DNA of 64,000 nucleotides from Bartonella taylorii (GTDB lineage: Bacteria; Pseudomonadota; Alphaproteobacteria; Rhizobiales; Rhizobiaceae): assembly GCF_023920105.1 (NCBI RefSeq), contig NZ_CP083693.1, positions 174,501 to 238,500 of the forward strand, written 5' to 3'. Positions 1,948 to 50,781 of the stretch are shown here, piece by piece (the first letter of the stretch is position 1; every line of letters starts with the position of its first letter). The translations under genes and the position numbers were made by a program. Below the pieces are notes generated by a model. The model had not been told where the DNA came from, did no database searches, and was given only the letters and a program-made list of their open reading frames with translations.

Positions 1948-1959
1948 TACAGACATAAA

Positions 1960-1984
1960 CAGCGCTGCTTATATTTCAGCGCTG
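1960..1984 (-). terminator. Possible hairpin terminator of the 769-aa autotransporter
   Basis: Two copies of the self-complementary octamer CAGCGCTG (1960-1967 and 1977-1984) can pair as an 8-bp GC-rich stem just past the stop codon at 2016. Only a weak T run follows on the minus strand, so this is a plausible but not classical intrinsic terminator. Confidence 0.4.
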
Positions 1985-2015
1985 CATTTATTTCAGAAAT
2001 AGAAATCAAAGATTT

Positions 2016-18818: not shown

Positions 18819-21800
18819 ATGATCAATGTATTTAAAAAGCGTACACGTTTGTGCGCACTAACAACGAGCACTCTTTTCTTTTTACAAGGTGTAGATGCGT
18901 CTATGGGGAGTGGTTGGTTTTCATTCCCCTCAGTACAAAAATTATCATCTTTCGTGTTGGGAAGCGGATCCCAAGAACCTGCATCACCACCTACGCCATC
19001 TGGATCGCCATCTATAGAACAATCACCATCTGGAGGGCAATCTCAAGCGCTACCTTTAAAATCTGGAGAGGGCAGTAATCCTGTGCAGGGGAGCAGTAAT
19101 CCTGTGCAAGGGAGCGGTGATCCTGTGAAAGGGAGCGAGAAGGCTGGGCAGGGGAGCGAGAAGGTTGGACAGGGAAGTGAGAATGCTGAACAAGGTGCGG
19201 GAACTGTTCAGGGGAAAGGGTCTTCAAAGCTCACTTTTGCGTGCAATGGTGGGAATTATAAAAGCGTTGCTTCCATGTTCTGTGATGATGGTGGGAATCA
19301 TGTAATGAAAAGGGGTGCTATTCAGACGCAGAAAATTGATCAAATTGCTGTGTATGCAACGACTAAGTCTTCATCGGAGCTTTCTGGTGGAATACAGAGG
19401 CCTGTTACTGATGGGGCGGGTGGTCAGGATTCTGGTTTGGGTGTAGGAGGAGTAATTTCAGGGACAACTATTGTGTTAAATAATATGTCCATTAGTGGGG
19501 TGGCTCCTTCGTCTATTGCAGTGGTGCCTCCTATAAAAGGTGCTTTAGATGATGTGGCTAAAAAAACAGCTGGTGATCATGGTGAAGCTTTTGCGGCAGG
19601 GGTATTAGCAACGTCTTTTTCAAAAGTTAAGTTGGAAAATTCGAATATTAAGAAGTTTGCAGTTGGGGTTCATGCGCACCAGTACGGGGGAATCTACATG
19701 AAAGGTGGGACGGTCTATTATACTGATATAGGTGCTGCGGCTCGTCAGGGATCGTTTGTTATTTTGGATGGAGTGGTTTTTGATGAAGTTAGAACTGGTT
19801 TGCACAGTTCTAATGGATCTAGAATAATGATGAAATCTGGGCAGATTAACTTTGCGAAAGGCGGAGCAGGAGTCATATCGGAGAATAAAGGAATTGTTAA
19901 ATTAGAAGGGGCTAGAATAAGAATTAAAGAGGGAAGTGGTAAGCAAGATACTTCTGATGTTACAAGTTTTGCCCTCCTTTCGGATGGAGGGCTTATTTCC
20001 TTTCATAATGGAGAAGTTACGGGGACTGATGCAGTTGCTTTGTGGGTAACTGATGATATTACTGCGTCTTCTCTTCGAATGAATGTTGATGCTTTACCGG
20101 GTTTTCTCTCTCACCGTTCTTTGGGTAGTGAAAGTAGTGACCATAATATGAATCCAGTTTATAAAGTTCATCACGTTGTGGATAGTATTTATCCTGATGT
20201 TATCACTACTATGAATTCTATTGTAGGTGATGAAAATACCTCGCACCATCTGAATATTGTAGATTCTAATAGTCCTGTAGATGCTTTGAAGGTTAAAGCT
20301 GATATCAAGGAATCAAATATTAAAATTGAGGGGAGAAATTCTTATGGGATATCTTTTGGTAAAATAAGTAGAATAAGTTCAAACGGTCAGAAACGCAAAG
20401 AAAGGAGTGAGGTTAATACCAACAAGCAAATGGTTTTTTTGCAAAAGACTTCTCTTTTTGTTCCGGAAGGTGTAGCTGTTTATGGTAATAATTTGAATGG
20501 TATTGTCCTTTTAGGAGAGGGGACAGTTCTTTCTGGTGATTCATTTTTGAAGGCTGAATCTTTTTCTAATCTGGCTGTGTACGCTTTTAAATCTTCGATT
20601 ATGGGTGATTCTCAAATTAGTGAAAATGCTCATGCTAGACTTTATTTGTCTGATGAATCGGGATGGTATTTAGCAAAAAGTAATAATAGAAATCTGGGAC
20701 AGGTAAATACAGGGGGAGAAGTAAATACGGGGAGGGTAGTAGATAAGTATTGTATAGATTCATGTGTTTCATTTGTAGGTCTTGCAAATAGTGCGATTGC
20801 ATTTTTACCTCCAAGAGATGAAAACGAAGGTTATCAAATGCTGCATATTGGAGACAGTAGAGGTGTAGCTTACATTGCTACTGGAGATTCCAAAATTTAT
20901 GTCAATACGAGTTTTGTTTCTGACGATTCAGGTAACGTTAAACTTTTGTCTGATCAACTTTTTATTTATGGTGATGTTTTTGGAAAAACTAAGGTTTATG
21001 TGAACGACTCGTCTGTCATTGAGACCCTAAATGGAAAGTTAAAAAATGGAGAAAAAGTTCAGCGTGAAAGTATACAAAATCAGGCTGAAGGAAAGGAAAA
21101 TAAGAATATTCCTGACAGTATTCCAATTGTTCAAGTTTTGGGAGAAGCAAACAGAGATTCCTTTGAGCTTGCTACTGGATATGTTACATTGCAGGGTTCG
21201 CCTTATCAGTACATCCTTCGCGCTTCTGATCCAATTCTCGGTTCAGGACGTACACAGCTGTGGAAATTCAACTTAGAAAGTAAATTGGAAGGTGGAGCTG
21301 ACGGATCTGTTAATTCTCCGGGATTGAAGGTTGATCCTAATGCATCTGGTAGCCGCACACCTGATGCTGGTACTCCCACACCTGATGCTGGTACTCCCGC
21401 GCCTGAAGCTGGTACTCCCGCGCCTGAAGCTGGTACTCCCGCATCTGATCCTGGTCGCTCCCCGTCTGAGCCTGGTAGCCACACACCTCAGGCTGATGGT
21501 TCCACAGTTCAGACTGGTAATCCCGTATCTGAGCCTGGTAGCCAAACATCTCAGGCTGGTAACTTGACCCCTCAGGCTGGTATCTCCACACCTGTGTCTG
21601 GTCTCCCCGCGCCTGAGGTTGGTAACTCCGCATCTGATCCTAGTAACCCAATATCTCAGGATGGTAGTCCCACATCTGAGCTTGGTGGCCAGATACCTCA
21701 GACTGGTGGTTCCACACTTCAGACTGGTGACCCCGCACCTGAGGCTGCTAGCCAGACACCTCAGGCTGGTAGCCCTGCATCTGGTGCTTCCGCATCTGAT

Positions 21801-24800
21801 CCTAGTAACCCCACATCTGATCCTGGGCGCTCTCCGTCTGAGCCTGGTAGCCAAACATCTCAGGTTGGTGGTCATATACAGGAGGTTCGTGACTCTTCAT
21901 TGTCTCAGAACTCTATACCTGTAGTATCTGGTCAAGCTGGTTCGCTTGAAAAAGATAATGTAGATCCCTCTACTTTGAGGGTATCTAGTTCACGTGGACC
22001 TTCTGGACATACTCTATCTCTCTCGTATGGAATTCCTACATCTGACCAAGAGAGATATGGAAATATAGTAGTGACAAAAGGCGATGTGGATATTGTACTT
22101 TTGAATCAAATGGATAAAGCTTCTTATGGGGTAGAATCTGGTATGGTAGAGTATAACATAACAGATGAAAGTGGTAACCCTATAACATTTGATAGTAATT
22201 CTGATAGAATTGATGTTATAAAAAGTGTACCTGGTGTGACTCCACCTAGTACGCCTATAGGGACCGGTGTAACTCCTCCTGTTCAATCTAATGAAGCATC
22301 TGAAAATGTAAGGACTATTACGCATGAGGGAGCTGGAATACCTGTAGCAGGAAAAACTCCATCTGTTGTTCCTGCTGGTGCCTCGACACTTCAGGCTGGT
22401 ATCTCCACACCTGAGTCTGGTGTCCCCGCGCCTGAGTTTGGTAACTCCGCATCTGATCCTAGTAACCAAATATCTCAGGATGGTAGTCCCACATCTGAGC
22501 TTGGTGGACAGACACCTCAGGCTGGTGGTTCCACACCTCAGACTGGTGAGCCCGCAACTAAGCCTGGTAGCCACATACCTGATTCTGGTAGCCCTGCGCC
22601 TGAAGCTAGTAATCCCGCATCTGATCCTGGTCGCTCCCCGTCTGAGCCTGGTAGCCACACACCTCAGGCTGGTGGTTCCACACTTCAGACTGGTGACCCC
22701 GCACCTGAGGCTGCTAGCCAGACACCTCAGGCTGGTAGCCCTGCATCTGAGCTTGTTAGTACGCCTGTAGGGACCGGTGTAACTTCTTCTGTTCAATCTA
22801 ATGAAGCATCTGAAAATGTAAGGACTATTACGCATGAGGGAGCTGGAGTACCTGTAGCAGGAGAAACTCCACCTGTTGTTTCTACTGGTGCCTCTGCACC
22901 TAAGGCTTCTAGCCCCACACTTCAGGCTGGTGGTTCCACACTTCAGACTGGTAATCTCGCATCTGAGCCTGGTAGCCCCACACTTCAGGCTGGTAACCTG
23001 ACACCTCAGGCTGGTAGCTCCGCACCTCAGGCTGGTAAATTGCCTTCTGCTGTGAAGTCTACTGATTCCACGAACTCTACGTTAGGTTCCAAAGAATCTA
23101 TTTCTGTAAAGCCTGTGGCTTCTGAGGAATCTAGAGTCCCCGCTGTCGCAGGTGTTAGCAGTGCAGGTAAGGAAGGTACTCCTGCTGGATGTAATGGTAT
23201 TGGGGGGAATGGTGCTGGGCAATCGCAAGGCTCTCTTTTATGCAGTGATGGCAAATCATATACAGTCCGGCAGCTTACACTGAACGCAAATAATTCAACA
23301 CAACATTCTATGCATGTAAAAAGTGGCACGAATATTAAGCTAAACGCTGCCACCATTATTGGTCCGGATTCTGGTAATAGAGATGCTGTTGATCTTGCTA
23401 AATTGAGTTCTGTAAGTGCTGTTTTTGCAGAAGAGAATGCAGAAGTTGTTTTAGAGAATAAATCAATAATTCAATCTTCTGTGATTGGGCTTGAGGCGAA
23501 AAGTGGTGGAAAGGTTAAAATGGATAACGGGACAGTCAATGCTCGTTATATGGCTGCTTTGGCGGGTACGGGGGCTGTTGTTACTTTAAAGAACACGCAA
23601 ATTAATGTGGAGGGGGATTCAGCTACCGCTGGTTTGGTTAGTAAAGGCGGTGATATAACCATGGAATCTGGAACGATTACTATGAAAAAGGGAGTTGCGG
23701 TTCAGTCGGAAGAAGGTGGACATGTTAGATTAAACAAAGTTAGCGTTATTGCGAAAAAAGAAGCAAGAGAGCCGGATTCTGCTAACAAGTCTGAACATGC
23801 AGCTATTCTGTTGAACAATAATAGCGTTGTTGAATTTACTCATGGTGATGTTGTTACTGATGCTAATGCTTTGTGGATTAGGGATGGTGATGGCAACATT
23901 GAGCAGGGCTCTTCTAGAAGAAGAAGATCCTCTGACGTTCGTCCTTCTATGAATCACGCTAATATTGAATTTTCTACTATTAAAGTGGAGAGTGATAATT
24001 CCTATGGCATATATTTTGATGGGGCGGGTCGGAAAGCCGTAGATCAACAGAGTCAAAATAAAATCCCAGAAAAAATTGTTTCAGGATCATCAGTTGAGGA
24101 TTCTGGAACAGGAAGCCTTGTTAAGCGAAGTGCTGTACGTCCACAGGAGAAAGCTCCTGTAAGCATAACAGGGGCGGTTTCACTGAAACGCACTAATTTC
24201 GAAGTTCTAAAAAGCATAGCTATTTATGGTAATAATTCTGGTGGTCGTGTTTCTTTGGAAAATAGAACAAATCTTACTGGTGATTTGCTTTTGAAAGCAG
24301 AGAGTAATTCTCATATGTCGGTTTTGGTTGATAACTCTTCTATTATGGGTGGTGTGCGCGTTGATAAAACTTCTTATGCTACATTAGATTTGACCAATCG
24401 TTCAGAGTGGTATCTGACAAGAAGTGCGCATAAAAATTTGAGAGCTCCAGATTCAGAGTGCGTGGATTCGTGTATTTCCTCTGTAAGTCTTGTAAATAGT
24501 GATATTCATTTTTTACCTTCGCAATCTGAAGAGTTAGAGTATCAGACACTTCGCATTGGAGAAGGAAAAGGTATTGTCTACAAAGCGCAGGGCGATGTTT
24601 CAATTCACTTCAATGCACGTTTAAACCCCAATGATCCGAGTGATAGACAAGTAAGTGATCGACTTGTAATCCATGGTGATGTTGAAGGAAAAACAGTAGT
24701 ATCTGTGCGAAGCGTTTCTGGAAGTGTAGGAGAAAACAACGGAAGTGATAAAACAGCACATAGTGTTTCAGTTATTCAGGTTTATGGAAAGGCAGAAAAA

Positions 24801-26003
24801 GATTCTTTCCGGCTGGATAGTGATTATGTTGCGCTGGGGAACTCACCTTACAAATATACTCTTCGTTCTTACAGTCCAGAAATGACTTCGAAACAAGAAC
24901 ATGTTCAACAGAAGTTTATGAAGGACGGTGGAGAATTTTGGAATTTCCGTTTAGAGAATCAGTATGTTAAGTCTGAGAGTTTTGATGCAAATATCGTTTC
25001 TAAGGCCGATACTATCTCTCTTCCTAGGAAAGTTGTAAGATCTGTTGTTCCGCAAGTTCCGACTTATCTGCTCTTGCCAAATAGCGTGTTTCATGCTGGT
25101 TTGATGGATATTAGCAATCAAAACAAGCAGTTAGAGACATTGCGGACTACTTCCAGTGGAATGGTAGAAATTCGTGAAAATCCTGCTTTGTATTTGCGCG
25201 GCTATGGCGGAAGTTACCGTTATGCTTCAGATTTGTCCGCACTTGAATATGGTTACGGAGGTGATCTTAGCTATAATGGTGTAGAGGCAGGTGTCTTGTT
25301 AAAAACAATTGAAAATGCTGACAACGCCATATCCTTTGGGGTTATGGGGTCTTATGGCAAACTTTCTCTCCAGCCTCAAGATGTTGAACAAAGCCAAGAG
25401 AGTGCCTTTGATAAATGGACTGCTACAGCCTATGGTAGCCTGCAGCATGAGACGGGTCTCTATGTAGATGGTCTTCTCTCCTATGGTCTGTTCAAAGGTG
25501 ATGTTGTCACCCTTGCACGGGGCAAGACAGCAACATTGAAGGGTAATCCTTTAAGCGTTTCTTTGACTGGTGGTCAGACGTTTGTAACGGGATATGAAGG
25601 TTTTGTCTTTGATCCACAAGTTCAGGTTGTTTATCAACATCTCCAGTTTAGTAAGGCCCGTGATATTGACAATTTTGATATTGAGCTTGGCAAGCTTGAT
25701 CAGTGGGTAGCACGTGTTGGTGGGCGTTTGAGCAAGGTTCCTACAGGATCTGAAGGAGTGAATGCTGTTGCTTTCTACGGGAAGCTTTATTTTGCACATG
25801 GTTTTGGAGGGAATAAATCTGTGCATTTCAAAGATGCTTTCCAGTTAGGTGCTTTTGGTTCTTCGCTAGAAGCTGGATTAGGATTTAATGCCAAATTGTC
25901 TTCGCAGTTTTCTCTGCATGGTGATGTTGTCTATCAACATAAGCTCAATAAGGCTGGTTTCTCTGGTACCAGTTTTTCTGGCGGAATCCGCTATCAGTTT
26001 TAG
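18819..26003 (+). CDS. Giant double-passenger autotransporter (2394 aa)
   Basis: Type V surface protein. The start chosen is ATG at 18819 (MINVFKKRTRLC...), matching its paralogs; a TTG six bases earlier is also in frame. Signal peptide residues 1-27. Gly/Ser/Gln heptads about 82-131 (GSxxxVQ type). First passenger unit about 135-815, ending with pre-barrel motifs (QVLGEANRDSFELATGYVTL, WKFNLE) but with no barrel. Heptapeptide linkers about 841-1023, 1186-1310 and 1357-1405. Second passenger unit about 1440-2040, again ending QVYGKAEKDSFRL and FWNFRLE. Barrel about 2074-2394, ending GGIRYQF. It looks like a fusion of two autotransporter genes that kept one translocator. A module containing SNEASENVRTITHEGAG occurs twice in the linker. 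Confidence 0.92.
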   Translation: MINVFKKRTRLCALTTSTLFFLQGVDASMGSGWFSFPSVQKLSSFVLGSGSQEPASPPTPSGSPSIEQSPSGGQSQALPLKSGEGSNPVQGSSNPVQGSGDPVKGSEKAGQGSEKVGQGSENAEQGAGTVQGKGSSKLTFACNGGNYKSVASMFCDDGGNHVMKRGAIQTQKIDQIAVYATTKSSSELSGGIQRPVTDGAGGQDSGLGVGGVISGTTIVLNNMSISGVAPSSIAVVPPIKGALDDVAKKTAGDHGEAFAAGVLATSFSKVKLENSNIKKFAVGVHAHQYGGIYMKGGTVYYTDIGAAARQGSFVILDGVVFDEVRTGLHSSNGSRIMMKSGQINFAKGGAGVISENKGIVKLEGARIRIKEGSGKQDTSDVTSFALLSDGGLISFHNGEVTGTDAVALWVTDDITASSLRMNVDALPGFLSHRSLGSESSDHNMNPVYKVHHVVDSIYPDVITTMNSIVGDENTSHHLNIVDSNSPVDALKVKADIKESNIKIEGRNSYGISFGKISRISSNGQKRKERSEVNTNKQMVFLQKTSLFVPEGVAVYGNNLNGIVLLGEGTVLSGDSFLKAESFSNLAVYAFKSSIMGDSQISENAHARLYLSDESGWYLAKSNNRNLGQVNTGGEVNTGRVVDKYCIDSCVSFVGLANSAIAFLPPRDENEGYQMLHIGDSRGVAYIATGDSKIYVNTSFVSDDSGNVKLLSDQLFIYGDVFGKTKVYVNDSSVIETLNGKLKNGEKVQRESIQNQAEGKENKNIPDSIPIVQVLGEANRDSFELATGYVTLQGSPYQYILRASDPILGSGRTQLWKFNLESKLEGGADGSVNSPGLKVDPNASGSRTPDAGTPTPDAGTPAPEAGTPAPEAGTPASDPGRSPSEPGSHTPQADGSTVQTGNPVSEPGSQTSQAGNLTPQAGISTPVSGLPAPEVGNSASDPSNPISQDGSPTSELGGQIPQTGGSTLQTGDPAPEAASQTPQAGSPASGASASDPSNPTSDPGRSPSEPGSQTSQVGGHIQEVRDSSLSQNSIPVVSGQAGSLEKDNVDPSTLRVSSSRGPSGHTLSLSYGIPTSDQERYGNIVVTKGDVDIVLLNQMDKASYGVESGMVEYNITDESGNPITFDSNSDRIDVIKSVPGVTPPSTPIGTGVTPPVQSNEASENVRTITHEGAGIPVAGKTPSVVPAGASTLQAGISTPESGVPAPEFGNSASDPSNQISQDGSPTSELGGQTPQAGGSTPQTGEPATKPGSHIPDSGSPAPEASNPASDPGRSPSEPGSHTPQAGGSTLQTGDPAPEAASQTPQAGSPASELVSTPVGTGVTSSVQSNEASENVRTITHEGAGVPVAGETPPVVSTGASAPKASSPTLQAGGSTLQTGNLASEPGSPTLQAGNLTPQAGSSAPQAGKLPSAVKSTDSTNSTLGSKESISVKPVASEESRVPAVAGVSSAGKEGTPAGCNGIGGNGAGQSQGSLLCSDGKSYTVRQLTLNANNSTQHSMHVKSGTNIKLNAATIIGPDSGNRDAVDLAKLSSVSAVFAEENAEVVLENKSIIQSSVIGLEAKSGGKVKMDNGTVNARYMAALAGTGAVVTLKNTQINVEGDSATAGLVSKGGDITMESGTITMKKGVAVQSEEGGHVRLNKVSVIAKKEAREPDSANKSEHAAILLNNNSVVEFTHGDVVTDANALWIRDGDGNIEQGSSRRRRSSDVRPSMNHANIEFSTIKVESDNSYGIYFDGAGRKAVDQQSQNKIPEKIVSGSSVEDSGTGSLVKRSAVRPQEKAPVSITGAVSLKRTNFEVLKSIAIYGNNSGGRVSLENRTNLTGDLLLKAESNSHMSVLVDNSSIMGGVRVDKTSYATLDLTNRSEWYLTRSAHKNLRAPDSECVDSCISSVSLVNSDIHFLPSQSEELEYQTLRIGEGKGIVYKAQGDVSIHFNARLNPNDPSDRQVSDRLVIHGDVEGKTVVSVRSVSGSVGENNGSDKTAHSVSVIQVYGKAEKDSFRLDSDYVALGNSPYKYTLRSYSPEMTSKQEHVQQKFMKDGGEFWNFRLENQYVKSESFDANIVSKADTISLPRKVVRSVVPQVPTYLLLPNSVFHAGLMDISNQNKQLETLRTTSSGMVEIRENPALYLRGYGGSYRYASDLSALEYGYGGDLSYNGVEAGVLLKTIENADNAISFGVMGSYGKLSLQPQDVEQSQESAFDKWTATAYGSLQHETGLYVDGLLSYGLFKGDVVTLARGKTATLKGNPLSVSLTGGQTFVTGYEGFVFDPQVQVVYQHLQFSKARDIDNFDIELGKLDQWVARVGGRLSKVPTGSEGVNAVAFYGKLYFAHGFGGNKSVHFKDAFQLGAFGSSLEAGLGFNAKLSSQFSLHGDVVYQHKLNKAGFSGTSFSGGIRYQF
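21343..23040 (+). repeat. 21-bp (heptapeptide) repeat linker in the 2394-aa gene
   Basis: Three blocks (21343-21890, 22378-22750, 22890-23040) of degenerate 21-base units encoding heptads of the type AGTPAPE / PGSxTPQ / TGGSTLQ. They sit between the two passenger units. Period 21 keeps the frame, so unit gain or loss changes linker length without breaking the gene. The same repeats create long open frames on the other strand and in another forward frame. Confidence 0.9.
22613..25995 (+). repeat. Duplicated 3' tract, copy A (partner 32312-35799)
   Basis: From about 22745 to 25995 the sequence reads the same as 32549-35799 at a constant offset of 9804. Upstream of a 105-bp (35-codon) insertion in copy B, a further ~135 bp matches at offset 9699. 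It covers the linker end, the second passenger unit and the barrel, stopping four codons short of the stop. Such identity in otherwise divergent paralogs implies very recent duplication or gene conversion. Confidence 0.92.
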
Positions 26004-26030
26004 GATAAGCTACAGTACGTATCTTTACGA

Positions 26031-26055
26031 AAAGGCAGCATAATGCTGCCTTTTT
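26031..26055 (+). terminator. Intrinsic terminator of the 2394-aa autotransporter
   Basis: GGCAGCA and TGCTGCC pair across a TAA loop, flanked by AAAA and TTTTT; 28 bases after the stop codon. Confidence 0.88.
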
Positions 26056-26456
26056 GCTTTATAACAATCTGTGTTGCTATTAAAAGATCCTAGTCCTTTT
26101 GATACGAAAGTCACAATATTTTTCTTTTTGTTTTACGTGTGAAAGCATTTTTTATGCTAAAGCAAATTTTCTTAAAATTTTGGCTGATAATGACACGATA
26201 CAGTGACTGACTTATAGAGGCTCTTTAATGGTGGGGGGGCTGCGTTAGTGTATAATATCTTAAAATATGCTACTTTATGGCGATCTGATTTATCCGCTAT
26301 AATGCTTAATGTTTCTTAACGCTGGTTTTTAGAATTTATTTTTACTGATTTAGATAATTCTTTCACACATGTCTTTGGTCAATTTTTAAAGTCCACAAGG
26401 GTAGATTGTGTCTTTAATTAATTACACGCTATGATTTTATTTTTGCTTTACACTAA

Positions 26457-26469
26457 ATGCATAATGCAT
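26457..26469. promoter_or_regulatory. Palindromic element ATGCAT-A-ATGCAT
   Basis: A perfect 6+6 inverted repeat with one central base, 221 bp upstream of the 1133-aa autotransporter, next to TTTACAC. It is similar to TACAT-W-ATGYR elements upstream of other plus-strand family members. Candidate shared operator; regulator unknown. Confidence 0.4.
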
Positions 26470-26659
26470 TATACACCTATAAAGTGCATTAAATGAATAT
26501 TCTCTCATAAGTGGTTGTTGTATTGGACGTAGATCTTCAGCCAAGTTTATTTGGATAATTTATTGCACGGGTTAAATGAGCAATAGATGCATCCTTTTGG
26601 TTTCGCCTTTTTATTTTGAGGTGTTTACCGAGGTGTTTTCGCGAGTGCTTTTGTTTTCA

Positions 26660-26698
26660 ATGAGAGGGGAAGAAAAGTTTCGAGGGAACTATGATTAA
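26660..26698 (+). other. Candidate leader mini-ORF overlapping the next start
   Basis: ATG at 26660 opens 12 codons (MRGEEKFRGNYD) that stop at 26698, five bases inside the autotransporter start (26691-26693). A similar frame occurs before the 1745-aa gene. It may be translated as a coupled leader, or the sequence may be conserved only as an untranslated leader. Confidence 0.3.
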
Positions 26699-29600
26699 AG
26701 TGTTTAGAAATCATGTATGTTTATGTACTTTCACAACGGCTATCTTTTCTTTGCTACAAAGTGGAATAGCAGTTGGTGCAAATATTGGAAGAGAAGGGGG
26801 AAAATCTTATAATATTAGCGTTTTTCCAGTGCCCCCAAGTGTGACCCTCTCTAGTTCTCCTAGAGAGATTCCTAACAGATCTGGTACGTATGACTATAAC
26901 GGGAATAATGGCTTTAGCGGATATGGATATAGTGGTGGCTATAATAGCCTTAGTGGTAGAAGACATAATAGCCTTAAAGGGGAGAGTGGGTCTGTTGGTG
27001 TCAATTCTACCGATATCAGTATTACTTCGATCAACTCAATCAACCCAGCTACTCCGATTAGCGCGTATAGGGGGCCAGATGGGAACGGATATATAGGTAT
27101 CAACGGGCATGAAGTTCTAGACTCTAATAGTATTAGTGGTAGCAGCCATAATCGCTTTTTTAGTGAGAGTCACCATAATGGCTTTAGCGGGGAGCGTGTG
27201 GGCAGCGGATCTGGTAGTGTAGTTTCTCATGTTCTTCTTGGTGGGAATAACTTGAATCGTACTCTTAGCGGAGAAAGTGGGGATAATGGACATATCGAGT
27301 ATAATCGTTTTGATGTCGAATATAATGGTGAGAAGCAATCATTATATGATGGCTTATATTATGTGTGTGACGGTTGCGGGAGCCGCCTAATTGATAATCA
27401 ATTTTATAAAATTACGAATGAGAACGTTTCCAACTATCCTTCTGATCCTACTGCTATAACGGTGAAAGGAATAGGTACGAAAGTTATTGGGAAAAATGTA
27501 ACGGTTAGTAGTCAAGTTGCTGATAAAACTTTTCTAGTAGGTGTGCATGTATTAGAGAACGGTAAGATTGTTTTGGAAGATCCGATTCTCAAAGGCACAG
27601 TTATAGCCCTTCGTGCGAGTGATGGAGTGATTGAGGTAAAAAATGGAAAGATTGAGAAAAGTCATGAGGGTGTTGATGCAACAGAGAATTCGTTTGTTCT
27701 TTTAGAAGATACAGAAATTAAGACTGCTAATGGGATCGCAAGTCTTTTAAGTTATGAGCATTCAGAAGTTTGGATGTCAGGTGGATCAGTTGATTTTATG
27801 AACAGCCATGGGATTTCTTCGATGTTAGGTGGAAAAGTAAATCTCGAGAATGTTGAAATTACTGGGAAGGCGGACAAAGGCAAGGATCGTGCGGTTGTAC
27901 ATATGGATTCAGGGGGGGCTGTTAATTTAGAGGGTAGTATTGTTAGTGCTGGTGGGGGCCTCCATGGTATATTATTAGAAACTACAGTCGATTCTATTCC
28001 TCTGCAGGAAGTTACAGATTTATCAAATGAGGATTATGATTTAAAGATTCCTGTGACTGAAGTTAATATGAAATCCTCTTCTGTTACCGTAAAGGGTAAG
28101 GGATCTTATGGTATCTACTTGCGGGGAGAGAAGCCATGGAGCGAAGGTGAAGCCAAAAAAGAAGAAATTTCATCAGAGAAAGAAAAAAATCCACCACGAT
28201 TAGAAGTTGTTAATTTGGATAAAACAGAGTTTTCTGTTTTAGACGATGCGGCTCTTTATGGTAGAAACATTATTTCTGGTGCGGTGGGGTTGGTGCACAG
28301 CACTCTTCGTTCCGGGAATTTTTTATTAAAAGCTGAGGAAGGTGCTTCTATAACAGTTTTGGCTGATGCTTCTACTCTTGAAGGCCGTACTTACGTTGAT
28401 AAAAATTCTAATGCCAAACTTTATTTGGGAGGCCGTTCTAAATGGATTTTACAACAACCGTTGCAAAAAGATCAACATGAGGCTGCACATGATTCTTCTA
28501 TTTCACTTGTAAGCCTTATGGGTGATAGTAGTATTAAGTTTACACAATTAAAACCTGATCAGAATTACATTTACCAAACACTCAGCATTGGAAAAGGAAC
28601 AGGTGAGGTTTATAGAGCGCAGGATGGTGCTCAGATTTATCTTAATACATATCTGAATAGTGGTGGCGCTCTTGATCATCAACAGACTGATCGTGTTTTG
28701 ATTGATGGTGATGTTTTTGGAATAACAACAGTGCATGTGCATGGTATTTCAGGAAGTCCAGGGGAATCTACTGGGAGTGGTGGAAATAATCAAGGTATTT
28801 CAATTATTCAGGTTTCTGGAGAGGCAAAAGAGCGTTCTTTTCAGTTGTATGGTGGTTATGTTGCTCTGAAAGATTCACCTTATCAGTATAGGCTTTATGC
28901 TTATGGTCCAACGTCTGGTTTGGGAGAAGCGGATCCTACTCAAAGATTGGTTAAAGGTAGCGGGGAATTTTGGGATTTTCGTCTCGAAAATGGATATATT
29001 GATGCTGATCTTAGACCTGAACCAGCCCCGATTCCTAGGCCTGAACCAGAACCTTCTCCTGATCTTAGACCTGAACCAGCGCCAGCTCCTGGACCTGATC
29101 CAAAACCTCATCCTAAGCCCGGAATCAAGGCTGTTGTTCCACAAGTTCCGACTTATCTGCTTTTGCCAAATGCTTTATTTCATGCAGGTTTGATGAATAT
29201 TAGCAATCAAAACAATCGGTTAGAAGCTTTGCGAACCACTTCCAATGGCATGTTAGAAATTCGTGAAAATCCTGCCTTTTTTGTGCGTGGTTATGGTGGA
29301 AATTACCGTTATGTTTCAAATCTTTCCGCTCTTGAATATGGTTATGGAGGTGAACTTGATTCTAATGCCATAGAGGCAGGCGTTTTGTTGCAAACAGTTG
29401 AAAATGCATATGGTGCTACTTCTTTTGGGGTGATAGGGTCTTACGAGAGACTTTCTTTGCAGCCTTTGGATGTTGAAAAAAGTCAAAAAAGCATGTTTGA
29501 TAAATGGTCAGTGACAGCATATGGTGGTATGCAGTGGGATACGGGCTTTTATGCTGATGGTCTTCTCTCCTATGGTTTGTTTAAGGGTGATGTCCTTACT

Positions 29601-30092
29601 CTTGCACGTGGCAAAACTGCAACATTAAAAGGAACCCCTCTAAGTGCTTCATTGACTTCTGGTAAAGCTTTTATGATAGGGGATAAAGGTCTTATTTTTG
29701 ATCCGCAGGTTCAAGTTGTCTATCAGCGTCTTCAGTTTAATAAAACTCGTGATATTGACGACTTTGATATTGATATGAGAAAACTTGATCAATGGGTAGC
29801 GCGTGTTGGTGGACGTTTAACAAAGACACTTCCAGCAACTGACGAGGCACGAGTTGTTTCTTTCTATGGGAAGCTTCATCTTGCGCATGGTTTTGGAGGT
29901 AAACAATCTGTACATTTCAAAGATGCTTTCCAGTTGGGAGCTTTTGGTTCTTCGCTAGAAACGGGATTAGGTTTTAATGCCCAATTGTCTCAAAAATTTG
30001 CGCTTCACGGTGATCTGATGTATCAGCACAAGCTTACCAAAGCTGGTTTTTCTGGTACTAGTTTTTCTGGTGGACTGCGCTATCATTTCTAG
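26691..30092 (+). CDS. Autotransporter with Gly/Asn/Ser-rich N-terminus (1133 aa)
   Basis: Type V surface protein. GAGGG lies 4 bases before the ATG. Signal peptide about residues 1-29 (MIKVFRNHVCLCTFTTAIFS...). Residues about 55-215 are low-complexity Gly/Asn/Ser/His repeats (NGFSG, NSLSG, HNSLKG types) unlike any paralog in the window. A CDGCG-containing segment at about 225 opens the passenger, which runs to about 770, followed by IQVSGEA and FWDFRLE. A short Pro/Glu linker (PEPxP repeats, about 780-805) precedes the barrel, about 812-1133, ending GGLRYHF. A G7 tract at 27912-27918 lies in the passenger. Ligand unknown. Confidence 0.93.
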   Translation: MIKVFRNHVCLCTFTTAIFSLLQSGIAVGANIGREGGKSYNISVFPVPPSVTLSSSPREIPNRSGTYDYNGNNGFSGYGYSGGYNSLSGRRHNSLKGESGSVGVNSTDISITSINSINPATPISAYRGPDGNGYIGINGHEVLDSNSISGSSHNRFFSESHHNGFSGERVGSGSGSVVSHVLLGGNNLNRTLSGESGDNGHIEYNRFDVEYNGEKQSLYDGLYYVCDGCGSRLIDNQFYKITNENVSNYPSDPTAITVKGIGTKVIGKNVTVSSQVADKTFLVGVHVLENGKIVLEDPILKGTVIALRASDGVIEVKNGKIEKSHEGVDATENSFVLLEDTEIKTANGIASLLSYEHSEVWMSGGSVDFMNSHGISSMLGGKVNLENVEITGKADKGKDRAVVHMDSGGAVNLEGSIVSAGGGLHGILLETTVDSIPLQEVTDLSNEDYDLKIPVTEVNMKSSSVTVKGKGSYGIYLRGEKPWSEGEAKKEEISSEKEKNPPRLEVVNLDKTEFSVLDDAALYGRNIISGAVGLVHSTLRSGNFLLKAEEGASITVLADASTLEGRTYVDKNSNAKLYLGGRSKWILQQPLQKDQHEAAHDSSISLVSLMGDSSIKFTQLKPDQNYIYQTLSIGKGTGEVYRAQDGAQIYLNTYLNSGGALDHQQTDRVLIDGDVFGITTVHVHGISGSPGESTGSGGNNQGISIIQVSGEAKERSFQLYGGYVALKDSPYQYRLYAYGPTSGLGEADPTQRLVKGSGEFWDFRLENGYIDADLRPEPAPIPRPEPEPSPDLRPEPAPAPGPDPKPHPKPGIKAVVPQVPTYLLLPNALFHAGLMNISNQNNRLEALRTTSNGMLEIRENPAFFVRGYGGNYRYVSNLSALEYGYGGELDSNAIEAGVLLQTVENAYGATSFGVIGSYERLSLQPLDVEKSQKSMFDKWSVTAYGGMQWDTGFYADGLLSYGLFKGDVLTLARGKTATLKGTPLSASLTSGKAFMIGDKGLIFDPQVQVVYQRLQFNKTRDIDDFDIDMRKLDQWVARVGGRLTKTLPATDEARVVSFYGKLHLAHGFGGKQSVHFKDAFQLGAFGSSLETGLGFNAQLSQKFALHGDLMYQHKLTKAGFSGTSFSGGLRYHF

Positions 30093-30569
30093 TTTTTCAT
30101 GTTTTTTGGCAATTTTTTTAAAGCCACAAGCATAGCTTGTGGCTTTTTCTTTTCCTTCAAAAGTTTTTATTGCTTAGCATTTTTGAAAGAATATTTTCAC
30201 ATTTAAAATGCGCTTTTTAGTTCTTTGAAGTTTTTTTGAAAAATGAGATCAGATTTTTGTTCTCAATAATTTCAAAATTTCCTATTTTATGGTGATTTAT
30301 CCTATTTGTATAAATTTACTAAAGCTGTTTTTGGTAACTGCTTTTTTAGAGAATTTCACATCGTTTTCAGCTGCATATTCATAAGTTTTTTGTAAAAATT
30401 ACAATCTTAGCTTGCGATTTTTTCATTATGCATTTACATAAACTACAAAATATATTAATTAAGTACAAAATATGTTATCAAAGTGTATTAAATGTGTTGC
30501 TCGTCGTCAAGGTATTTTGACAGAGTGTGTTTTTTTAATGAGCGGGGAAAGAAAGTTTATGGCGGAACT
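30093..30569. other. 477-bp intergenic region, 5' control of the 1745-aa gene
   Basis: It contains the terminator at 30121-30149, then an AT-rich stretch with TTTACATAAACTACAAAATA (30433-30452) and GTACAAAATATGTTAT (30463-30478), which resemble the elements before the other plus-strand family members. The region at 35808-36284 is the same length and a recognisable homolog, so gene plus spacer behave as one duplicated module. Confidence 0.55.
30121..30149 (+). terminator. Intrinsic terminator of the 1133-aa autotransporter
   Basis: AAGCCACAAGC pairs with GCTTGTGGCTT across an ATA loop, followed by a T run. Confidence 0.9.
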
Positions 30570-30573
30570 ATGA
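30538..30573 (+). other. Candidate leader mini-ORF (11 codons) overlapping the 1745-aa gene start
   Basis: ATG at 30538 opens MSGERKFMAEL and stops with TGA at 30571-30573, which overlaps the ATG at 30570 (ATGA arrangement). The equivalent stretch before the 1133-aa gene also opens with ATG and overlaps its start. Translational coupling is possible but unproven. Confidence 0.35.
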
Positions 30574-33500
30574 ACAAGATATTTAAAAATCATCTCTCAT
30601 TATGTGCTTTTACAACAGCTGTTATTTTTTTCGTGTCCAATGTAGATGCTCAAGTACAAGCTGCTGTTAGTGGTGATGTGCAGAATTGTAAGAATTATTT
30701 TTCGTGTGATAAAAATGGCTCATTTTATCGGTGCAATGGTGGTAGGGAGTACTTCATTTCCAAAAAAACTTATCAAAAAACTGGTGAACGCAATGCTGAA
30801 GGAGCAGCTATAGAAGCGTCTAAACATGGGACAAAGATTATAGGGAACAATATAACTATTCAGGGGGGGGCGAATAGTGGTAGTCTGGATAAAAGCTCTT
30901 GGAAGTATGGTGTAGCGGCCAGTAAATGGGGAGTCGTTAACATATTAACGGGGGCGATTGACTTTACAAATGCTGTTGGAGTTCACGCAAGTGGTAATGG
31001 AAGTGTCTACTTAACGAGCGTTTCCATTACCGGAACGGGTAGTCAGGCGGCGAATGTAGATAACAATAGTGAAAATTCGGCTTTTCAGATATCCGAAGAT
31101 TATGGCTATATCAATTTTGTCAAAGGTAACGTTAAGGTTTCTAATGCTCACGGCGTTTCATTTATGGGAATTGCCGGCGGTATTGATATACGCGATTCCA
31201 ATGTTGTAGTGGAGGGTAATACATCTTATGGCGTCTATCTTTTTGATAAGCAAGGGCAGCAATATAATAAGGATATAGAAGAGCGTTATAAGAGAAAAGA
31301 GACTTATTCTTTTAGGAACGGCCTTTTATCCCATAGTTTGCCGAGAGGAGAGGTATTAAAGCGTGGGGGGGTTGGTTTACATGGTGGCAGCTTTACCGTT
31401 CGAGATGGTGTGGCTATTTATAGCAAAAAATCTGGTAGTATTATTACATTAAAGGAGGGCGCTACACTTTCTGGAGATTTATTACTGAAGGTTGAGGATA
31501 GTTCTTTTGTAAAAGTTGTAGCTGAGGGGGGATCGTCACTTGTAGGGGGGGGTCGTATTGATGAAAGTTCTGATGCTCAATTTGGGTTGATGGAGAGATC
31601 AAAATGGACTTTAACGCGACCGAAAAATAAAGAATTGCAAGGTCTTGGCTCTATAGGTGTTTCATCGATTTCATTGATAGATCTTATTGATAGCTCTATT
31701 CTTTTTGCACAACCAGGCACCAGCGAAGCTGGTAATTATCAAACGCTTGTCATCGGAAAAGGATCAGGTGAGGTTTATAAGGCGCAAGGTAATTCTGAGA
31801 TTCACTTCAATGTGCATTTGGGTTCTAGAGATTTGAGTGGTAAGCAGATCTCTGATAGGCTTGTAATTCATGGTGATGTTTCTGGACAAACTAAGATACG
31901 TGTGCGTGGTGTTTCAGAAAATACAAAAAATGAAAGAGACGAGTCGGTATCGCCTTATAGTTTTCCAATTATTCAGGTTTATGGACAGGCAAAGAAGGAT
32001 TCTTTTATCTTAGATGGTGGTTATGTTACACTGGGCAATCTTCCTTATAAGTATGTTCTTCGTGCTTATGGTCCAGTTATTCCTCTAAAAATAGACTATT
32101 TCGTCCCAGAATTGGCTGCAAGTAGTAAAAATATTTGGTATTTTCGTTTAGAAGACGAAAAATCTAAGTCTATTATTGCTGGATATAATGCAGCTACTGA
32201 TAAAAATAAAGGAAGTAGTTCTGGTGAAGAGAAAGGAAGTGGTGGATCTGTAACGCCTTCTGTTTCTGTGTCTTCTGAAGATTCTGTGCATATAGTAACT
32301 GATCCTAGTAGACCCGCATCTGATCCTGGTCGCTCCCCGTCTGAGCCTGGTAGCCACACACCTCAGGCTGGTGGTTCCACACTTCAGACTGGTGACCCCG
32401 CACCTGAGGCTGCTAGCCAGACACCTCAGGCTGGTAGCCCTGCATCTGAGCCTGGTAGCTCCGCCTCTGAGTCTGGTAACCCCACAGCTCAGGCTGGTAA
32501 CCTGACACCTCAGGATGGTGGTCCTACATCTGAGCTTGGTAGCCCTGCATCTGAGCTTGTTAGTACGCCTGTAGGGACCGGTGTAACTTCTTCTGTTCAA
32601 TCTAATGAAGCATCTGAAAATGTAAGGACTATTACGCATGAGGGAGCTGGAGTACCTGTAGCAGGAGAAACTCCACCTGTTGTTTCTACTGGTGCCTCTG
32701 CACCTAAGGCTTCTAGCCCCACACTTCAGGCTGGTGGTTCCACACTTCAGACTGGTAATCTCGCATCTGAGCCTGGTAGCCCCACACTTCAGGCTGGTAA
32801 CCTGACACCTCAGGCTGGTAGCTCCGCACCTCAGGCTGGTAAATTGCCTTCTGCTGTGAAGTCTACTGATTCCACGAACTCTACGTTAGGTTCCAAAGAA
32901 TCTATTTCTGTAAAGCCTGTGGCTTCTGAGGAATCTAGAGTCCCCGCTGTCGCAGGTGTTAGCAGTGCAGGTAAGGAAGGTACTCCTGCTGGATGTAATG
33001 GTATTGGGGGGAATGGTGCTGGGCAATCGCAAGGCTCTCTTTTATGCAGTGATGGCAAATCATATACAGTCCGGCAGCTTACACTGAACGCAAATAATTC
33101 AACACAACATTCTATGCATGTAAAAAGTGGCACGAATATTAAGCTAAACGCTGCCACCATTATTGGTCCGGATTCTGGTAATAGAGATGCTGTTGATCTT
33201 GCTAAATTGAGTTCTGTAAGTGCTGTTTTTGCAGAAGAGAATGCAGAAGTTGTTTTAGAGAATAAATCAATAATTCAATCTTCTGTGATTGGGCTTGAGG
33301 CGAAAAGTGGTGGAAAGGTTAAAATGGATAACGGGACAGTCAATGCTCGTTATATGGCTGCTTTGGCGGGTACGGGGGCTGTTGTTACTTTAAAGAACAC
33401 GCAAATTAATGTGGAGGGGGATTCAGCTACCGCTGGTTTGGTTAGTAAAGGCGGTGATATAACCATGGAATCTGGAACGATTACTATGAAAAAGGGAGTT

Positions 33501-35807
33501 GCGGTTCAGTCGGAAGAAGGTGGACATGTTAGATTAAACAAAGTTAGCGTTATTGCGAAAAAAGAAGCAAGAGAGCCGGATTCTGCTAACAAGTCTGAAC
33601 ATGCAGCTATTCTGTTGAACAATAATAGCGTTGTTGAATTTACTCATGGTGATGTTGTTACTGATGCTAATGCTTTGTGGATTAGGGATGGTGATGGCAA
33701 CATTGAGCAGGGCTCTTCTAGAAGAAGAAGATCCTCTGACGTTCGTCCTTCTATGAATCACGCTAATATTGAATTTTCTACTATTAAAGTGGAGAGTGAT
33801 AATTCCTATGGCATATATTTTGATGGGGCGGGTCGGAAAGCCGTAGATCAACAGAGTCAAAATAAAATCCCAGAAAAAATTGTTTCAGGATCATCAGTTG
33901 AGGATTCTGGAACAGGAAGCCTTGTTAAGCGAAGTGCTGTACGTCCACAGGAGAAAGCTCCTGTAAGCATAACAGGGGCGGTTTCACTGAAACGCACTAA
34001 TTTCGAAGTTCTAAAAAGCATAGCTATTTATGGTAATAATTCTGGTGGTCGTGTTTCTTTGGAAAATAGAACAAATCTTACTGGTGATTTGCTTTTGAAA
34101 GCAGAGAGTAATTCTCATATGTCGGTTTTGGTTGATAACTCTTCTATTATGGGTGGTGTGCGCGTTGATAAAACTTCTTATGCTACATTAGATTTGACCA
34201 ATCGTTCAGAGTGGTATCTGACAAGAAGTGCGCATAAAAATTTGAGAGCTCCAGATTCAGAGTGCGTGGATTCGTGTATTTCCTCTGTAAGTCTTGTAAA
34301 TAGTGATATTCATTTTTTACCTTCGCAATCTGAAGAGTTAGAGTATCAGACACTTCGCATTGGAGAAGGAAAAGGTATTGTCTACAAAGCGCAGGGCGAT
34401 GTTTCAATTCACTTCAATGCACGTTTAAACCCCAATGATCCGAGTGATAGACAAGTAAGTGATCGACTTGTAATCCATGGTGATGTTGAAGGAAAAACAG
34501 TAGTATCTGTGCGAAGCGTTTCTGGAAGTGTAGGAGAAAACAACGGAAGTGATAAAACAGCACATAGTGTTTCAGTTATTCAGGTTTATGGAAAGGCAGA
34601 AAAAGATTCTTTCCGGCTGGATAGTGATTATGTTGCGCTGGGGAACTCACCTTACAAATATACTCTTCGTTCTTACAGTCCAGAAATGACTTCGAAACAA
34701 GAACATGTTCAACAGAAGTTTATGAAGGACGGTGGAGAATTTTGGAATTTCCGTTTAGAGAATCAGTATGTTAAGTCTGAGAGTTTTGATGCAAATATCG
34801 TTTCTAAGGCCGATACTATCTCTCTTCCTAGGAAAGTTGTAAGATCTGTTGTTCCGCAAGTTCCGACTTATCTGCTCTTGCCAAATAGCGTGTTTCATGC
34901 TGGTTTGATGGATATTAGCAATCAAAACAAGCAGTTAGAGACATTGCGGACTACTTCCAGTGGAATGGTAGAAATTCGTGAAAATCCTGCTTTGTATTTG
35001 CGCGGCTATGGCGGAAGTTACCGTTATGCTTCAGATTTGTCCGCACTTGAATATGGTTACGGAGGTGATCTTAGCTATAATGGTGTAGAGGCAGGTGTCT
35101 TGTTAAAAACAATTGAAAATGCTGACAACGCCATATCCTTTGGGGTTATGGGGTCTTATGGCAAACTTTCTCTCCAGCCTCAAGATGTTGAACAAAGCCA
35201 AGAGAGTGCCTTTGATAAATGGACTGCTACAGCCTATGGTAGCCTGCAGCATGAGACGGGTCTCTATGTAGATGGTCTTCTCTCCTATGGTCTGTTCAAA
35301 GGTGATGTTGTCACCCTTGCACGGGGCAAGACAGCAACATTGAAGGGTAATCCTTTAAGCGTTTCTTTGACTGGTGGTCAGACGTTTGTAACGGGATATG
35401 AAGGTTTTGTCTTTGATCCACAAGTTCAGGTTGTTTATCAACATCTCCAGTTTAGTAAGGCCCGTGATATTGACAATTTTGATATTGAGCTTGGCAAGCT
35501 TGATCAGTGGGTAGCACGTGTTGGTGGGCGTTTGAGCAAGGTTCCTACAGGATCTGAAGGAGTGAATGCTGTTGCTTTCTACGGGAAGCTTTATTTTGCA
35601 CATGGTTTTGGAGGGAATAAATCTGTGCATTTCAAAGATGCTTTCCAGTTAGGTGCTTTTGGTTCTTCGCTAGAAGCTGGATTAGGATTTAATGCCAAAT
35701 TGTCTTCGCAGTTTTCTCTGCATGGTGATGTTGTCTATCAACATAAGCTCAATAAGGCTGGTTTCTCTGGTACCAGTTTTTCTGGCGGAATCCGCTATCG
35801 TTTCTAG
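30570..35807 (+). CDS. Double-passenger autotransporter (1745 aa)
   Basis: Type V surface protein. The start chosen is ATG at 30570 (MNKIFKNHLSLCAFTTAVIF...), which gives a proper signal peptide of about 28 residues; an in-frame ATG at 30492 would bury it. First passenger unit about 30-530 with a Cys-containing entry (CKNYFSCDKNGSFYRCNGG) and pre-barrel motifs but no barrel. Heptad linkers about 581-663 and 709-757. Second passenger unit about 790-1390. Barrel about 1424-1745, ending GGIRYRF. From about residue 660 it reads the same as the 2394-aa protein except for the last residues. The first passenger instead resembles the 1131-aa neighbour (CNDGKAHEISQKTYKLTGE). It is therefore a mosaic of two different paralogs. 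G8, G7 and G8 tracts lie in the first passenger. Confidence 0.92.
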   Translation: MNKIFKNHLSLCAFTTAVIFFVSNVDAQVQAAVSGDVQNCKNYFSCDKNGSFYRCNGGREYFISKKTYQKTGERNAEGAAIEASKHGTKIIGNNITIQGGANSGSLDKSSWKYGVAASKWGVVNILTGAIDFTNAVGVHASGNGSVYLTSVSITGTGSQAANVDNNSENSAFQISEDYGYINFVKGNVKVSNAHGVSFMGIAGGIDIRDSNVVVEGNTSYGVYLFDKQGQQYNKDIEERYKRKETYSFRNGLLSHSLPRGEVLKRGGVGLHGGSFTVRDGVAIYSKKSGSIITLKEGATLSGDLLLKVEDSSFVKVVAEGGSSLVGGGRIDESSDAQFGLMERSKWTLTRPKNKELQGLGSIGVSSISLIDLIDSSILFAQPGTSEAGNYQTLVIGKGSGEVYKAQGNSEIHFNVHLGSRDLSGKQISDRLVIHGDVSGQTKIRVRGVSENTKNERDESVSPYSFPIIQVYGQAKKDSFILDGGYVTLGNLPYKYVLRAYGPVIPLKIDYFVPELAASSKNIWYFRLEDEKSKSIIAGYNAATDKNKGSSSGEEKGSGGSVTPSVSVSSEDSVHIVTDPSRPASDPGRSPSEPGSHTPQAGGSTLQTGDPAPEAASQTPQAGSPASEPGSSASESGNPTAQAGNLTPQDGGPTSELGSPASELVSTPVGTGVTSSVQSNEASENVRTITHEGAGVPVAGETPPVVSTGASAPKASSPTLQAGGSTLQTGNLASEPGSPTLQAGNLTPQAGSSAPQAGKLPSAVKSTDSTNSTLGSKESISVKPVASEESRVPAVAGVSSAGKEGTPAGCNGIGGNGAGQSQGSLLCSDGKSYTVRQLTLNANNSTQHSMHVKSGTNIKLNAATIIGPDSGNRDAVDLAKLSSVSAVFAEENAEVVLENKSIIQSSVIGLEAKSGGKVKMDNGTVNARYMAALAGTGAVVTLKNTQINVEGDSATAGLVSKGGDITMESGTITMKKGVAVQSEEGGHVRLNKVSVIAKKEAREPDSANKSEHAAILLNNNSVVEFTHGDVVTDANALWIRDGDGNIEQGSSRRRRSSDVRPSMNHANIEFSTIKVESDNSYGIYFDGAGRKAVDQQSQNKIPEKIVSGSSVEDSGTGSLVKRSAVRPQEKAPVSITGAVSLKRTNFEVLKSIAIYGNNSGGRVSLENRTNLTGDLLLKAESNSHMSVLVDNSSIMGGVRVDKTSYATLDLTNRSEWYLTRSAHKNLRAPDSECVDSCISSVSLVNSDIHFLPSQSEELEYQTLRIGEGKGIVYKAQGDVSIHFNARLNPNDPSDRQVSDRLVIHGDVEGKTVVSVRSVSGSVGENNGSDKTAHSVSVIQVYGKAEKDSFRLDSDYVALGNSPYKYTLRSYSPEMTSKQEHVQQKFMKDGGEFWNFRLENQYVKSESFDANIVSKADTISLPRKVVRSVVPQVPTYLLLPNSVFHAGLMDISNQNKQLETLRTTSSGMVEIRENPALYLRGYGGSYRYASDLSALEYGYGGDLSYNGVEAGVLLKTIENADNAISFGVMGSYGKLSLQPQDVEQSQESAFDKWTATAYGSLQHETGLYVDGLLSYGLFKGDVVTLARGKTATLKGNPLSVSLTGGQTFVTGYEGFVFDPQVQVVYQHLQFSKARDIDNFDIELGKLDQWVARVGGRLSKVPTGSEGVNAVAFYGKLYFAHGFGGNKSVHFKDAFQLGAFGSSLEAGLGFNAKLSSQFSLHGDVVYQHKLNKAGFSGTSFSGGIRYRF
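32312..35799 (+). repeat. Duplicated 3' tract, copy B (partner 22613-25995)
   Basis: Same block as copy A, with a 35-codon heptad insertion in the linker (about 32452-32556). Identity ends at the base before the last two codons, after which this copy has its own 3' flank and terminator. Confidence 0.92.
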
Positions 35808-35834
35808 TGTAATCACGTTTTTGGTCAATTCTTT

Positions 35835-35865
35835 AAAAAGCCACAAGTTATACTTGTGGCTTTTT
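35835..35865 (+). terminator. Intrinsic terminator of the 1745-aa autotransporter
   Basis: AAAAAGCCACAAG pairs with CTTGTGGCTTTTT across a short TTATA loop. The stem is almost the same as at 30121-30149. Confidence 0.9.
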
Positions 35866-36185
35866 GCTTTTTGTCAGTTGTTTTGCGAGCAATTTTGAAA
35901 ATAAGTCCTTTACATGTCTTAAAAATGCTAAAATACTTTCCTGTTGGGTTTCTTTGTTCTCCTTTTCGAAATGAGATTAAGATTTTATACTTCATCGTTT
36001 GCAATTCTCGTTTTTATGGTGATTTTTCCGATTAGTGCACATTTGTAAGCTGCTTTTAAATAACTGCTTTTTTGTACGGCTTTATTTTTAGTTGTATTTT
36101 TACGTGTTTTTTGTGAATATTACAATTTTAGATTGTAATATTCTTCATTTTGGCTTTACATAAGATACAAAACGGATTAATAAAA

Positions 36186-50771: not shown

Positions 50772-50781
50772 TGTCACTCAC

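What the first reader, a model, noticed from the sequence alone, without database searches (positions are those of the whole stretch)
22613..35799. 3.25-kb 3' tract shared without visible change by two paralogs 9.8 kb apart
Second passenger unit and barrel of the 2394-aa and 1745-aa genes read as identical while everything upstream differs. This implies very recent gene conversion or cassette exchange, and recombination between the copies would delete or duplicate the 1133-aa gene between them.
Basis: seen in the sequence. Interest (0 to 1): 0.75.

Follow-up and report, generated by a model that had tools for sequence, protein, structure and literature searches.

The report
Surface-protein module copied between neighbouring genes
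In a Bartonella chromosome, the back part of one giant surface-protein gene appears to have been copied letter for letter over the end of a neighbouring gene, turning a one-arm surface protein into a two-arm one, which shows how such bacteria can reshuffle the antigens they display.

Summary
Genes A (18819-26003) and C (30570-35807) share 3263 identical bases; beyond a 105-nt repeat-length difference the match continues upstream to 22614/32313. The window is a Bartonella type Va autotransporter array in a single-contig 1.94-Mb genome.

Relatives give the direction. A's second passenger sits in the gene upstream of B in 35 of 36 relatives; C is a one-passenger gene (857-1074 aa) in 32 of 32 relatives with an intact gene there, but 1745 aa with two passengers here. 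C keeps its own N-terminal unit, last 8 coding bases and terminator. So A's linker, second passenger, autochaperone and barrel were copied one way into C, recently (0 changes at about 769 synonymous sites). Of 71 genus genomes, 40 encode this passenger; only this one has it in two different genes (a contaminated draft, G066, has the whole A twice).

Barrels are also homogenised within some other genomes, and E and F here share a second unchanged tract. Inferred, not shown: RecA-type conversion with crossovers in linker repeats and the barrel end. A is probably the protective antigen CFA (not sequence-tested). Assembly error is unlikely, not excluded.

The parts
18819..26003 (+). Gene A (2394 aa from ATG; 2396 from TTG 18813): two-passenger classical autotransporter, donor
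   Evidence: PF03797 and AC_1; two autochaperone hits with a home-made AC profile, about 20751-21224 and 24453-24872, barrel about 25005-26000 (converted to window coordinates)
26691..30092 (+). Gene B (1133 aa), one-passenger autotransporter lying between the copies, not part of the shared tract
   Evidence: barrel 78% to A and C
30570..35807 (+). Gene C (1745 aa from ATG 30570; ORF 1771 aa from 30492): chimera of a native first unit and A's linker, second passenger, autochaperone and barrel, recipient
   Evidence: AC at about 31659-32069 and 34257-34676, barrel about 34809-35804 (converted)
22733..25995 (+). Shared tract, copy in A, 3263 nt identical
32537..35799 (+). Shared tract, copy in C, 3263 nt identical
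22614..22732 (+). Upstream continuation of the tract in A, 119 nt identical, Pro/Ser-rich 21-nt repeat linker
32313..32431 (+). Upstream continuation of the tract in C, 119 nt identical
32432..32536 (+). 105-nt block present only in the C copy, made of linker-repeat-like sequence; repeat-length difference within the tract
32299..32310 (+). 12-nt match to A's linker units at 21634, 21796, 22453; likely left limit of the copied DNA
   Evidence: assignment is inference
23253..24452 (+). Second passenger (A2) in A
   Evidence: query
33057..34256 (+). Second passenger (A2) copy in C, 100% identical
   Evidence: G000:C1:207557-208756
35800..35875 (+). Native C end: last 8 coding nt and downstream terminator-like sequence, matching C genes of G052 and G032, not A
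43566..45586 (+). Gene E side of a second unchanged tract (813 + 1215 nt exact, 69-nt linker-repeat length difference)
46913..49002 (+). Gene F side of the second unchanged tract

Best explanation
A recent one-way copying event (ectopic gene conversion) inside a Bartonella autotransporter array. Shown: A and C share a linker, a whole passenger, its autochaperone and the barrel without a base change, while C's first unit, its last 8 coding bases and its 3' flank are its own type. Shown by comparison with relatives: the copied passenger belongs to A, and the C position normally holds a one-passenger gene. Inferred: a broken or invading strand of C used A as template (RecA-dependent repair from the same chromosome, a sister chromosome, or gene-transfer-agent DNA of a near-identical cell); the left crossover fell in the Pro/Ser-rich 21-nt repeat linkers, the right one in the conserved last beta-strand codons; because the left crossover used A's first linker rather than the one next to the barrel, a passenger came along and C became a two-passenger autotransporter. 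Linker repeat number has changed since (105 nt) while coding sequence has not. Expected effect, inferred: the conserved CFA-like second passenger is now expressed from two promoters and displayed behind C's own first passenger.
For: 3263-nt exact tract plus 119 nt. A2 passenger 302-454 bits in A-position genes of 35 of 36 relatives with B, exception G075 at 122 bits (31 of 32, 4 of 4); C-position genes of 32 of 32 relatives with an intact one have one AC domain and at most 115 bits to A2, against 805 in this genome. Whole-genome search: 40 of 71 genus genomes encode A2; 38 once, this genome in A and C, G066 twice. C's 3' end and flank match C of G052 and G032. Zero changes at about 769 synonymous sites, while the best relative's A is 79% identical over 2729 aligned nt of the tract. 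Barrel tree: A and C form a within-genome pair in this genome, G052 and G073, 3 of the 32 genomes where both barrels were compared; A and B in G049, 1 of 36. A second unchanged tract in E/F of the same array again spans the repeat linker and most of the barrel.
Against: No pre-event sequence of this species is available, so the lost native barrel of C is inferred from relatives. In 16 of 32 relatives the C-position gene scores better with this genome's D passenger than with C's, so orthology of C's first unit is loose there (the other 16 score best with C; G073 and G052 clearly). Two successive unequal crossovers (duplication then deletion) would give the same end product. G049's A/B tract runs 235 nt past the stop codons, and E/F stops 81 nt short, so the right edge is not always at the barrel end. 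No experiment shows RecA dependence, expression or function.
Confidence: 0.82

Rival explanations
1. Two-step unequal crossing-over: a crossover between the linkers of A and C first duplicated the A-end/B block behind C's first unit, then a second crossover between barrel ends deleted the duplicated B, leaving the chimera.
For: Same sequences and repeat homologies would be used; tandem duplication is common in these arrays (E/F here; two B-like genes in G066).
Against: Needs two events, the second ending within the last codons; no leftover of the intermediate (second B or A's 3' flank behind C) is seen.
Confidence: 0.1
2. Import rather than local copying: a gene-transfer-agent fragment from a near-identical cell carried the A end and recombined ectopically into C.
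For: In Bartonella grahamii a region rich in secretion-system genes, with two autotransporter clusters, is amplified and packaged in 14-kb pieces (PMC2697382, abstract and passages); 14 kb would cover this tract.
Against: Indistinguishable by sequence because donor and resident A would be identical; no test here. Whether this array lies in an amplified region of this genome was not examined.
Confidence: 0.25
3. Assembly or polishing artefact: the assembler copied one repeat into both places or consensus polishing erased real differences.
For: Identical 3.3-kb repeats are classical problem spots; reads are not available.
Against: One contig; edges unique; the C copy keeps a 105-nt block, the native last 8 nt and a native terminator; the two-passenger ORF is open end to end; an independent second tract with the same pattern exists in E/F.
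Confidence: 0.05
4. Purifying selection kept two old copies identical.
For: None beyond the identity itself.
Against: Zero changes at about 769 synonymous sites and identity across variable passenger and linker; the same stretch is 79% identical at best to a relative's A.
Confidence: 0.01

Closest known systems
Bartonella Iba / CFA (CAMP-like factor autotransporter) arrays
   Same: Tandem classical autotransporters with fast-evolving passengers; up to six tandem iba copies (PMC3610622, passages); in B. quintana the adjacent genes BQ10280 and BQ10290 are annotated as inducible Bartonella autotransporter / CAMP-like factor autotransporter (PMC3595295, one table passage); B. henselae cohemolysin described as a 180-kDa autotransporter (PMC6299047, passage), in the size range of A-type genes.
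   Different: I found no description there of a two-passenger C gene or of a zero-divergence A/C tract. Assignment of A to CFA is by annotation, size and position, not by alignment to the named protein.
Recombination among other Bartonella surface or host-interaction gene families (vomp/badA, trw, bep)
   Same: Intragenomic recombination that copies, deletes and hybridises neighbouring copies (PMC11466379, passage; PMC6299047 on gene conversion in trw, passage; PMC10936683 and PMC10288214 on badA/vomp, passages).
   Different: Those are trimeric autotransporters, pilus or effector genes; here a type Va gene gained a whole passenger module.
Gene conversion between paralogous surface antigens in other bacteria (Neisseria opa/pil, Chlamydia pmp; recalled, with two listings not read)
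   Same: Nonreciprocal copying between homologous antigen genes.
   Different: No silent cassette store or single expression site is seen here; both genes are complete and the module is acquired in addition, not swapped for an equivalent.

Membership tests
Classical (type Va) autotransporter | C-terminal beta-barrel domain PF03797 | tested here: met
   A 77.4 bits, C 79.7 bits, cut-off 26; TIGR01414 also above cut-off
Classical (type Va) autotransporter | Beta-helical passenger with autochaperone | tested here: met
   PF18883 AC_1 in A and C. Model of the copied unit: passenger largely confident short strands, but residues 577-921 (linker and barrel) failed with pLDDT about 20 on a 4-sequence alignment; best fold matches pertactin 1dab E 9.6e-6, TM 0.54 of target; no PDB sequence match
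Classical (type Va) autotransporter | Secretion to the surface | not testable with these tools
   none
Ectopic gene conversion | Tract of near-zero divergence with abrupt edges inside otherwise diverged paralogs | tested here: met
Ectopic gene conversion | Recipient keeps native sequence on both sides; donor intact | tested here: met
   3' side; 5' unit; donor type conserved in relatives:
Ectopic gene conversion | Single nonreciprocal event, RecA dependent | not testable with these tools
   end product only; two-step crossing-over gives the same
CFA (gene A) | Alignment to the named CFA protein of B. henselae or B. taylorii | not tested
   the primary papers are not held; no named protein record at hand; only reviews seen as passages
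Programmed antigenic variation with silent cassettes | One expression site plus silent donor copies | tested here: not met
   A and C are both complete open genes; silent copies are limited to one relic, about 39815-42330

The most novel reading that the evidence does not exclude
Bartonella type Va arrays work as an open module-shuffling system: repetitive Pro/Ser linkers and conserved barrel ends act as standing crossover sites at which barrel cassettes, and sometimes whole passengers, move between neighbours. Occasional use of the inner linker makes two-passenger proteins, which could also be how the conserved two-passenger gene A (probable CFA) arose and how it varies.
Probability: 0.3. Interest if true: 0.72.

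Novelty: new variant of a known kind. Interest (0 to 1): 0.55.

Why it matters
Reviews describe CFA as a protective antigen, target of neutralising antibodies and hypervariable, and one states that the precise mechanism of its variation remains unclear (PMC10936683 section 16; PMC10288214 passages). If A is CFA, this window holds a dated, directional exchange between CFA and a neighbour, with its donor, recipient and crossover regions visible. That makes intragenomic recombination a concrete, testable source of change in this array. It also shows how a one-passenger autotransporter can become a two-passenger one in what may be a single step.

Tried and rejected
Plain homogenisation of shared 3' ends was rejected because the tract adds a passenger that C-position genes of 32 of 32 relatives lack. 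The reverse direction (C to A) was rejected because the A2 passenger is an A feature in 35 of 36 relatives. A preference for the nearest neighbour was not supported: A and C exchanged across B here, in G052 and in G073, while A and B did in G049. A cassette always ending at the barrel end was rejected: G049 runs 235 nt past the stops and E/F stops 81 nt short. The structure model helped only for the passenger. Naming the species failed: the one genome-contig scan left this genome out.

Rows dropped before counts. From 35 fetched relative loci: no B in G039, G046, G026; no C-position barrel gene in G038, G040, G049; only a 598-aa remnant without AC in G056. That leaves 28 with C, plus 4 (G001, G002, G010, G011). 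G075's A is single-unit and counted as the exception. G066's A is cut by the fetch edge, G027's A is split into two ORFs and G052's A has a run of N. I fetched 35 plus 4 of the genus genomes found; of the 44 relatives passing the 1e-200 cut, G021, G031, G053, G058 and G059 were not fetched. One search's output was cut in the middle; one search covers those loci. Trees are single FastTree runs.

Full report
What was checked. A script comparing the two stretches base by base finds 3263 consecutive identical bases, 22733-25995 and 32537-35799. With a gap, a further 119 bases match without error upstream (22614-22732 and 32313-32431); between the two blocks copy C has 105 nt more (32432-32536), built of linker-repeat-like sequence. 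Identity ends 8 nt before the end of both reading frames, and the 3' flanks differ. In the whole own genome only these two places match the tract at 99-100% over nearly its full length; the next best hit is 78% over 954 nt of barrel.

What the genes are. All six long genes tested carry an autotransporter barrel (PF03797) and an AC_1 autochaperone above cut-off. Relatives found by sequence are Bartonella, and the window lies in a single contig of 1,939,282 bases. On the plus strand the array runs A, B, C, D, a relic, E, F; a second cluster on the minus strand (622-12384) carries autotransporter domains as well. A sits next to an iron-type ABC transporter gene set (FecCD, Peripla_BP_2, ABC_tran), and periplasmic and permease-like genes of the same lengths lie beside A in G011, G001, G002 and G010 as well.

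Direction. Gene order A-B-C is conserved. I compared this genome with 39 relatives (35 loci; G001, G002, G010, G011). B was identified in 36 of them (32 plus 4). The gene upstream of B carries A's second passenger at 302 bits or more in 35 of 36; G075 is the exception (122 bits, 1171 aa, one AC). An intact gene at the C position exists in 32; it has one AC domain in 32 of 32, 857-1074 aa, and at most 115 bits to the A2 passenger. In this genome C has two AC domains and A2 at 805 bits. A whole-genome search with the A2 passenger over 71 genus genomes found it in 40: once in 38, in A and C here, and twice in G066, where both hits lie in 2235-aa frames on two contigs of a draft with 10% contamination. 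So A is donor and C recipient. A caution: in 16 of the 32 relatives the C-position gene resembles this genome's D passenger more than C's, so there are at least two types at that position.

Edges. C's first unit is native: it matches the C genes of G073 (386 bits) and G052 (357 bits) best. C's last 8 coding bases and the following terminator-like sequence match C of G052 and G032, while A's end and flank match other A genes. The right crossover therefore fell in the conserved codons of the last barrel strand. The left edge lies in Pro/Ser-rich repeat linker: C reads CTGATCCTAGTA at 32299, a motif present three times in A's linker, followed by the copied block. Native C linkers of many relatives are also short-repeat sequences. 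I infer repeat-assisted crossover; the exact base cannot be fixed.

Age. The exact tract holds about 769 synonymous sites with no change, whereas the best relative's A is 79% identical over 2729 aligned bases of it. A three-in-n bound gives less than about 0.4% synonymous divergence (my arithmetic). Linker repeats change faster: 105 nt between A and C, 69 nt between E and F.

Is it a habit of the array? In a codon-aligned barrel tree, A and C are nearest neighbours within this genome, G052 and G073 (3 of 32 genomes with both), and A and B in G049 (1 of 36); otherwise A, B and C barrels group by gene. This genome, G073 and G052 are also neighbours in the B barrels, so some A/C exchange may go back to their ancestor, but neither G052 nor G073 has A2 in C. 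Among 135 within-locus barrel pairs of 36 loci, 7 are at least 90% identical; three of these are neighbouring duplicates (E/F here, G066, G026), for which tandem duplication alone is an alternative. E and F share 813 and 1215 identical bases around a 69-nt repeat difference, ending 81 nt before the stops. G049 A and B share 1196 identical bases, 235 of them past the stops (computed from the coordinates). The 3263-nt tract is the longest exact direct repeat among the loci fetched.

Protein side. A model of the copied unit (C residues 851-1771, four sequences) gives confident short-strand structure for much of the passenger and fails from residue 577 on, including the barrel. Its best fold matches are pertactin structures; no PDB sequence matched. 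So the tract codes for a complete passenger-autochaperone-barrel unit by family models, with only the passenger supported by the model. In the rows that were shown, A's second passenger is 46-60% identical between genomes, its first about 25-40%; the copied half is the more conserved one.

Relation to known work. Up to six tandem iba autotransporters with rapid change are described (PMC3610622, passages). Two autotransporter clusters expanding by tandem duplication, and amplification with packaging of host-adaptability genes in 14-kb pieces, are described for B. grahamii (PMC2697382, abstract and passages). Recombination that copies and hybridises neighbouring virulence genes is noted for Bartonella, with one 44-bp conversion in an evolution experiment (PMC11466379, passages). 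CFA is described as protective, hypervariable and of unclear variation mechanism (PMC10936683 section 16; PMC10288214 passages). The primary CFA papers were not held, so A as CFA rests on size, adjacency and the annotation of BQ10280/BQ10290 (PMC3595295, one passage). Searches of an open-access library showed me no report of this A-to-C chimera; subscription papers were not covered.

Verdict. Real, recent, directional copying of a passenger-barrel module between autotransporter neighbours; the kind of process is known, the outcome (a gene gaining a second passenger) is a new variant.

Noticed in passing
43566-45586 and 46913-49002: Genes E and F share 813 + 1215 nt exactly, with a 69-nt repeat-length difference in the linker, although their passengers and last 81 nt differ: a second unchanged tract in the same array.
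   Followed up: partly
39815-42330: Relic of an autotransporter gene between D and E, with several stops and shifts; described only.
   Followed up: no
21319-22794: A's first linker contains a roughly 0.8-kb spaced internal duplication (280 nt, 81% to the start of the shared tract), so A itself carries two related linker blocks.
   Followed up: no
38055-38474: Gene D contains a 210-nt tandem duplication (88% identical) in its linker region.
   Followed up: no
622-12384: Second autotransporter cluster on the minus strand, four ORFs with barrel domains, the first of them only 415 aa.
   Followed up: no
L053:7263-8458 and 10972-12167: In G049 (one contig, 1,588,683 bases) A and B share 1196 identical bases including 235 past the stop codons.
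   Followed up: partly
L036 (G075), 4357-7872: The gene upstream of B has a single unit (1171 aa) and lacks A's second passenger, perhaps a loss.
   Followed up: no
49800-50777: WD40-repeat-like protein next to a CobW GTPase gene at the right border of the array.
   Followed up: no
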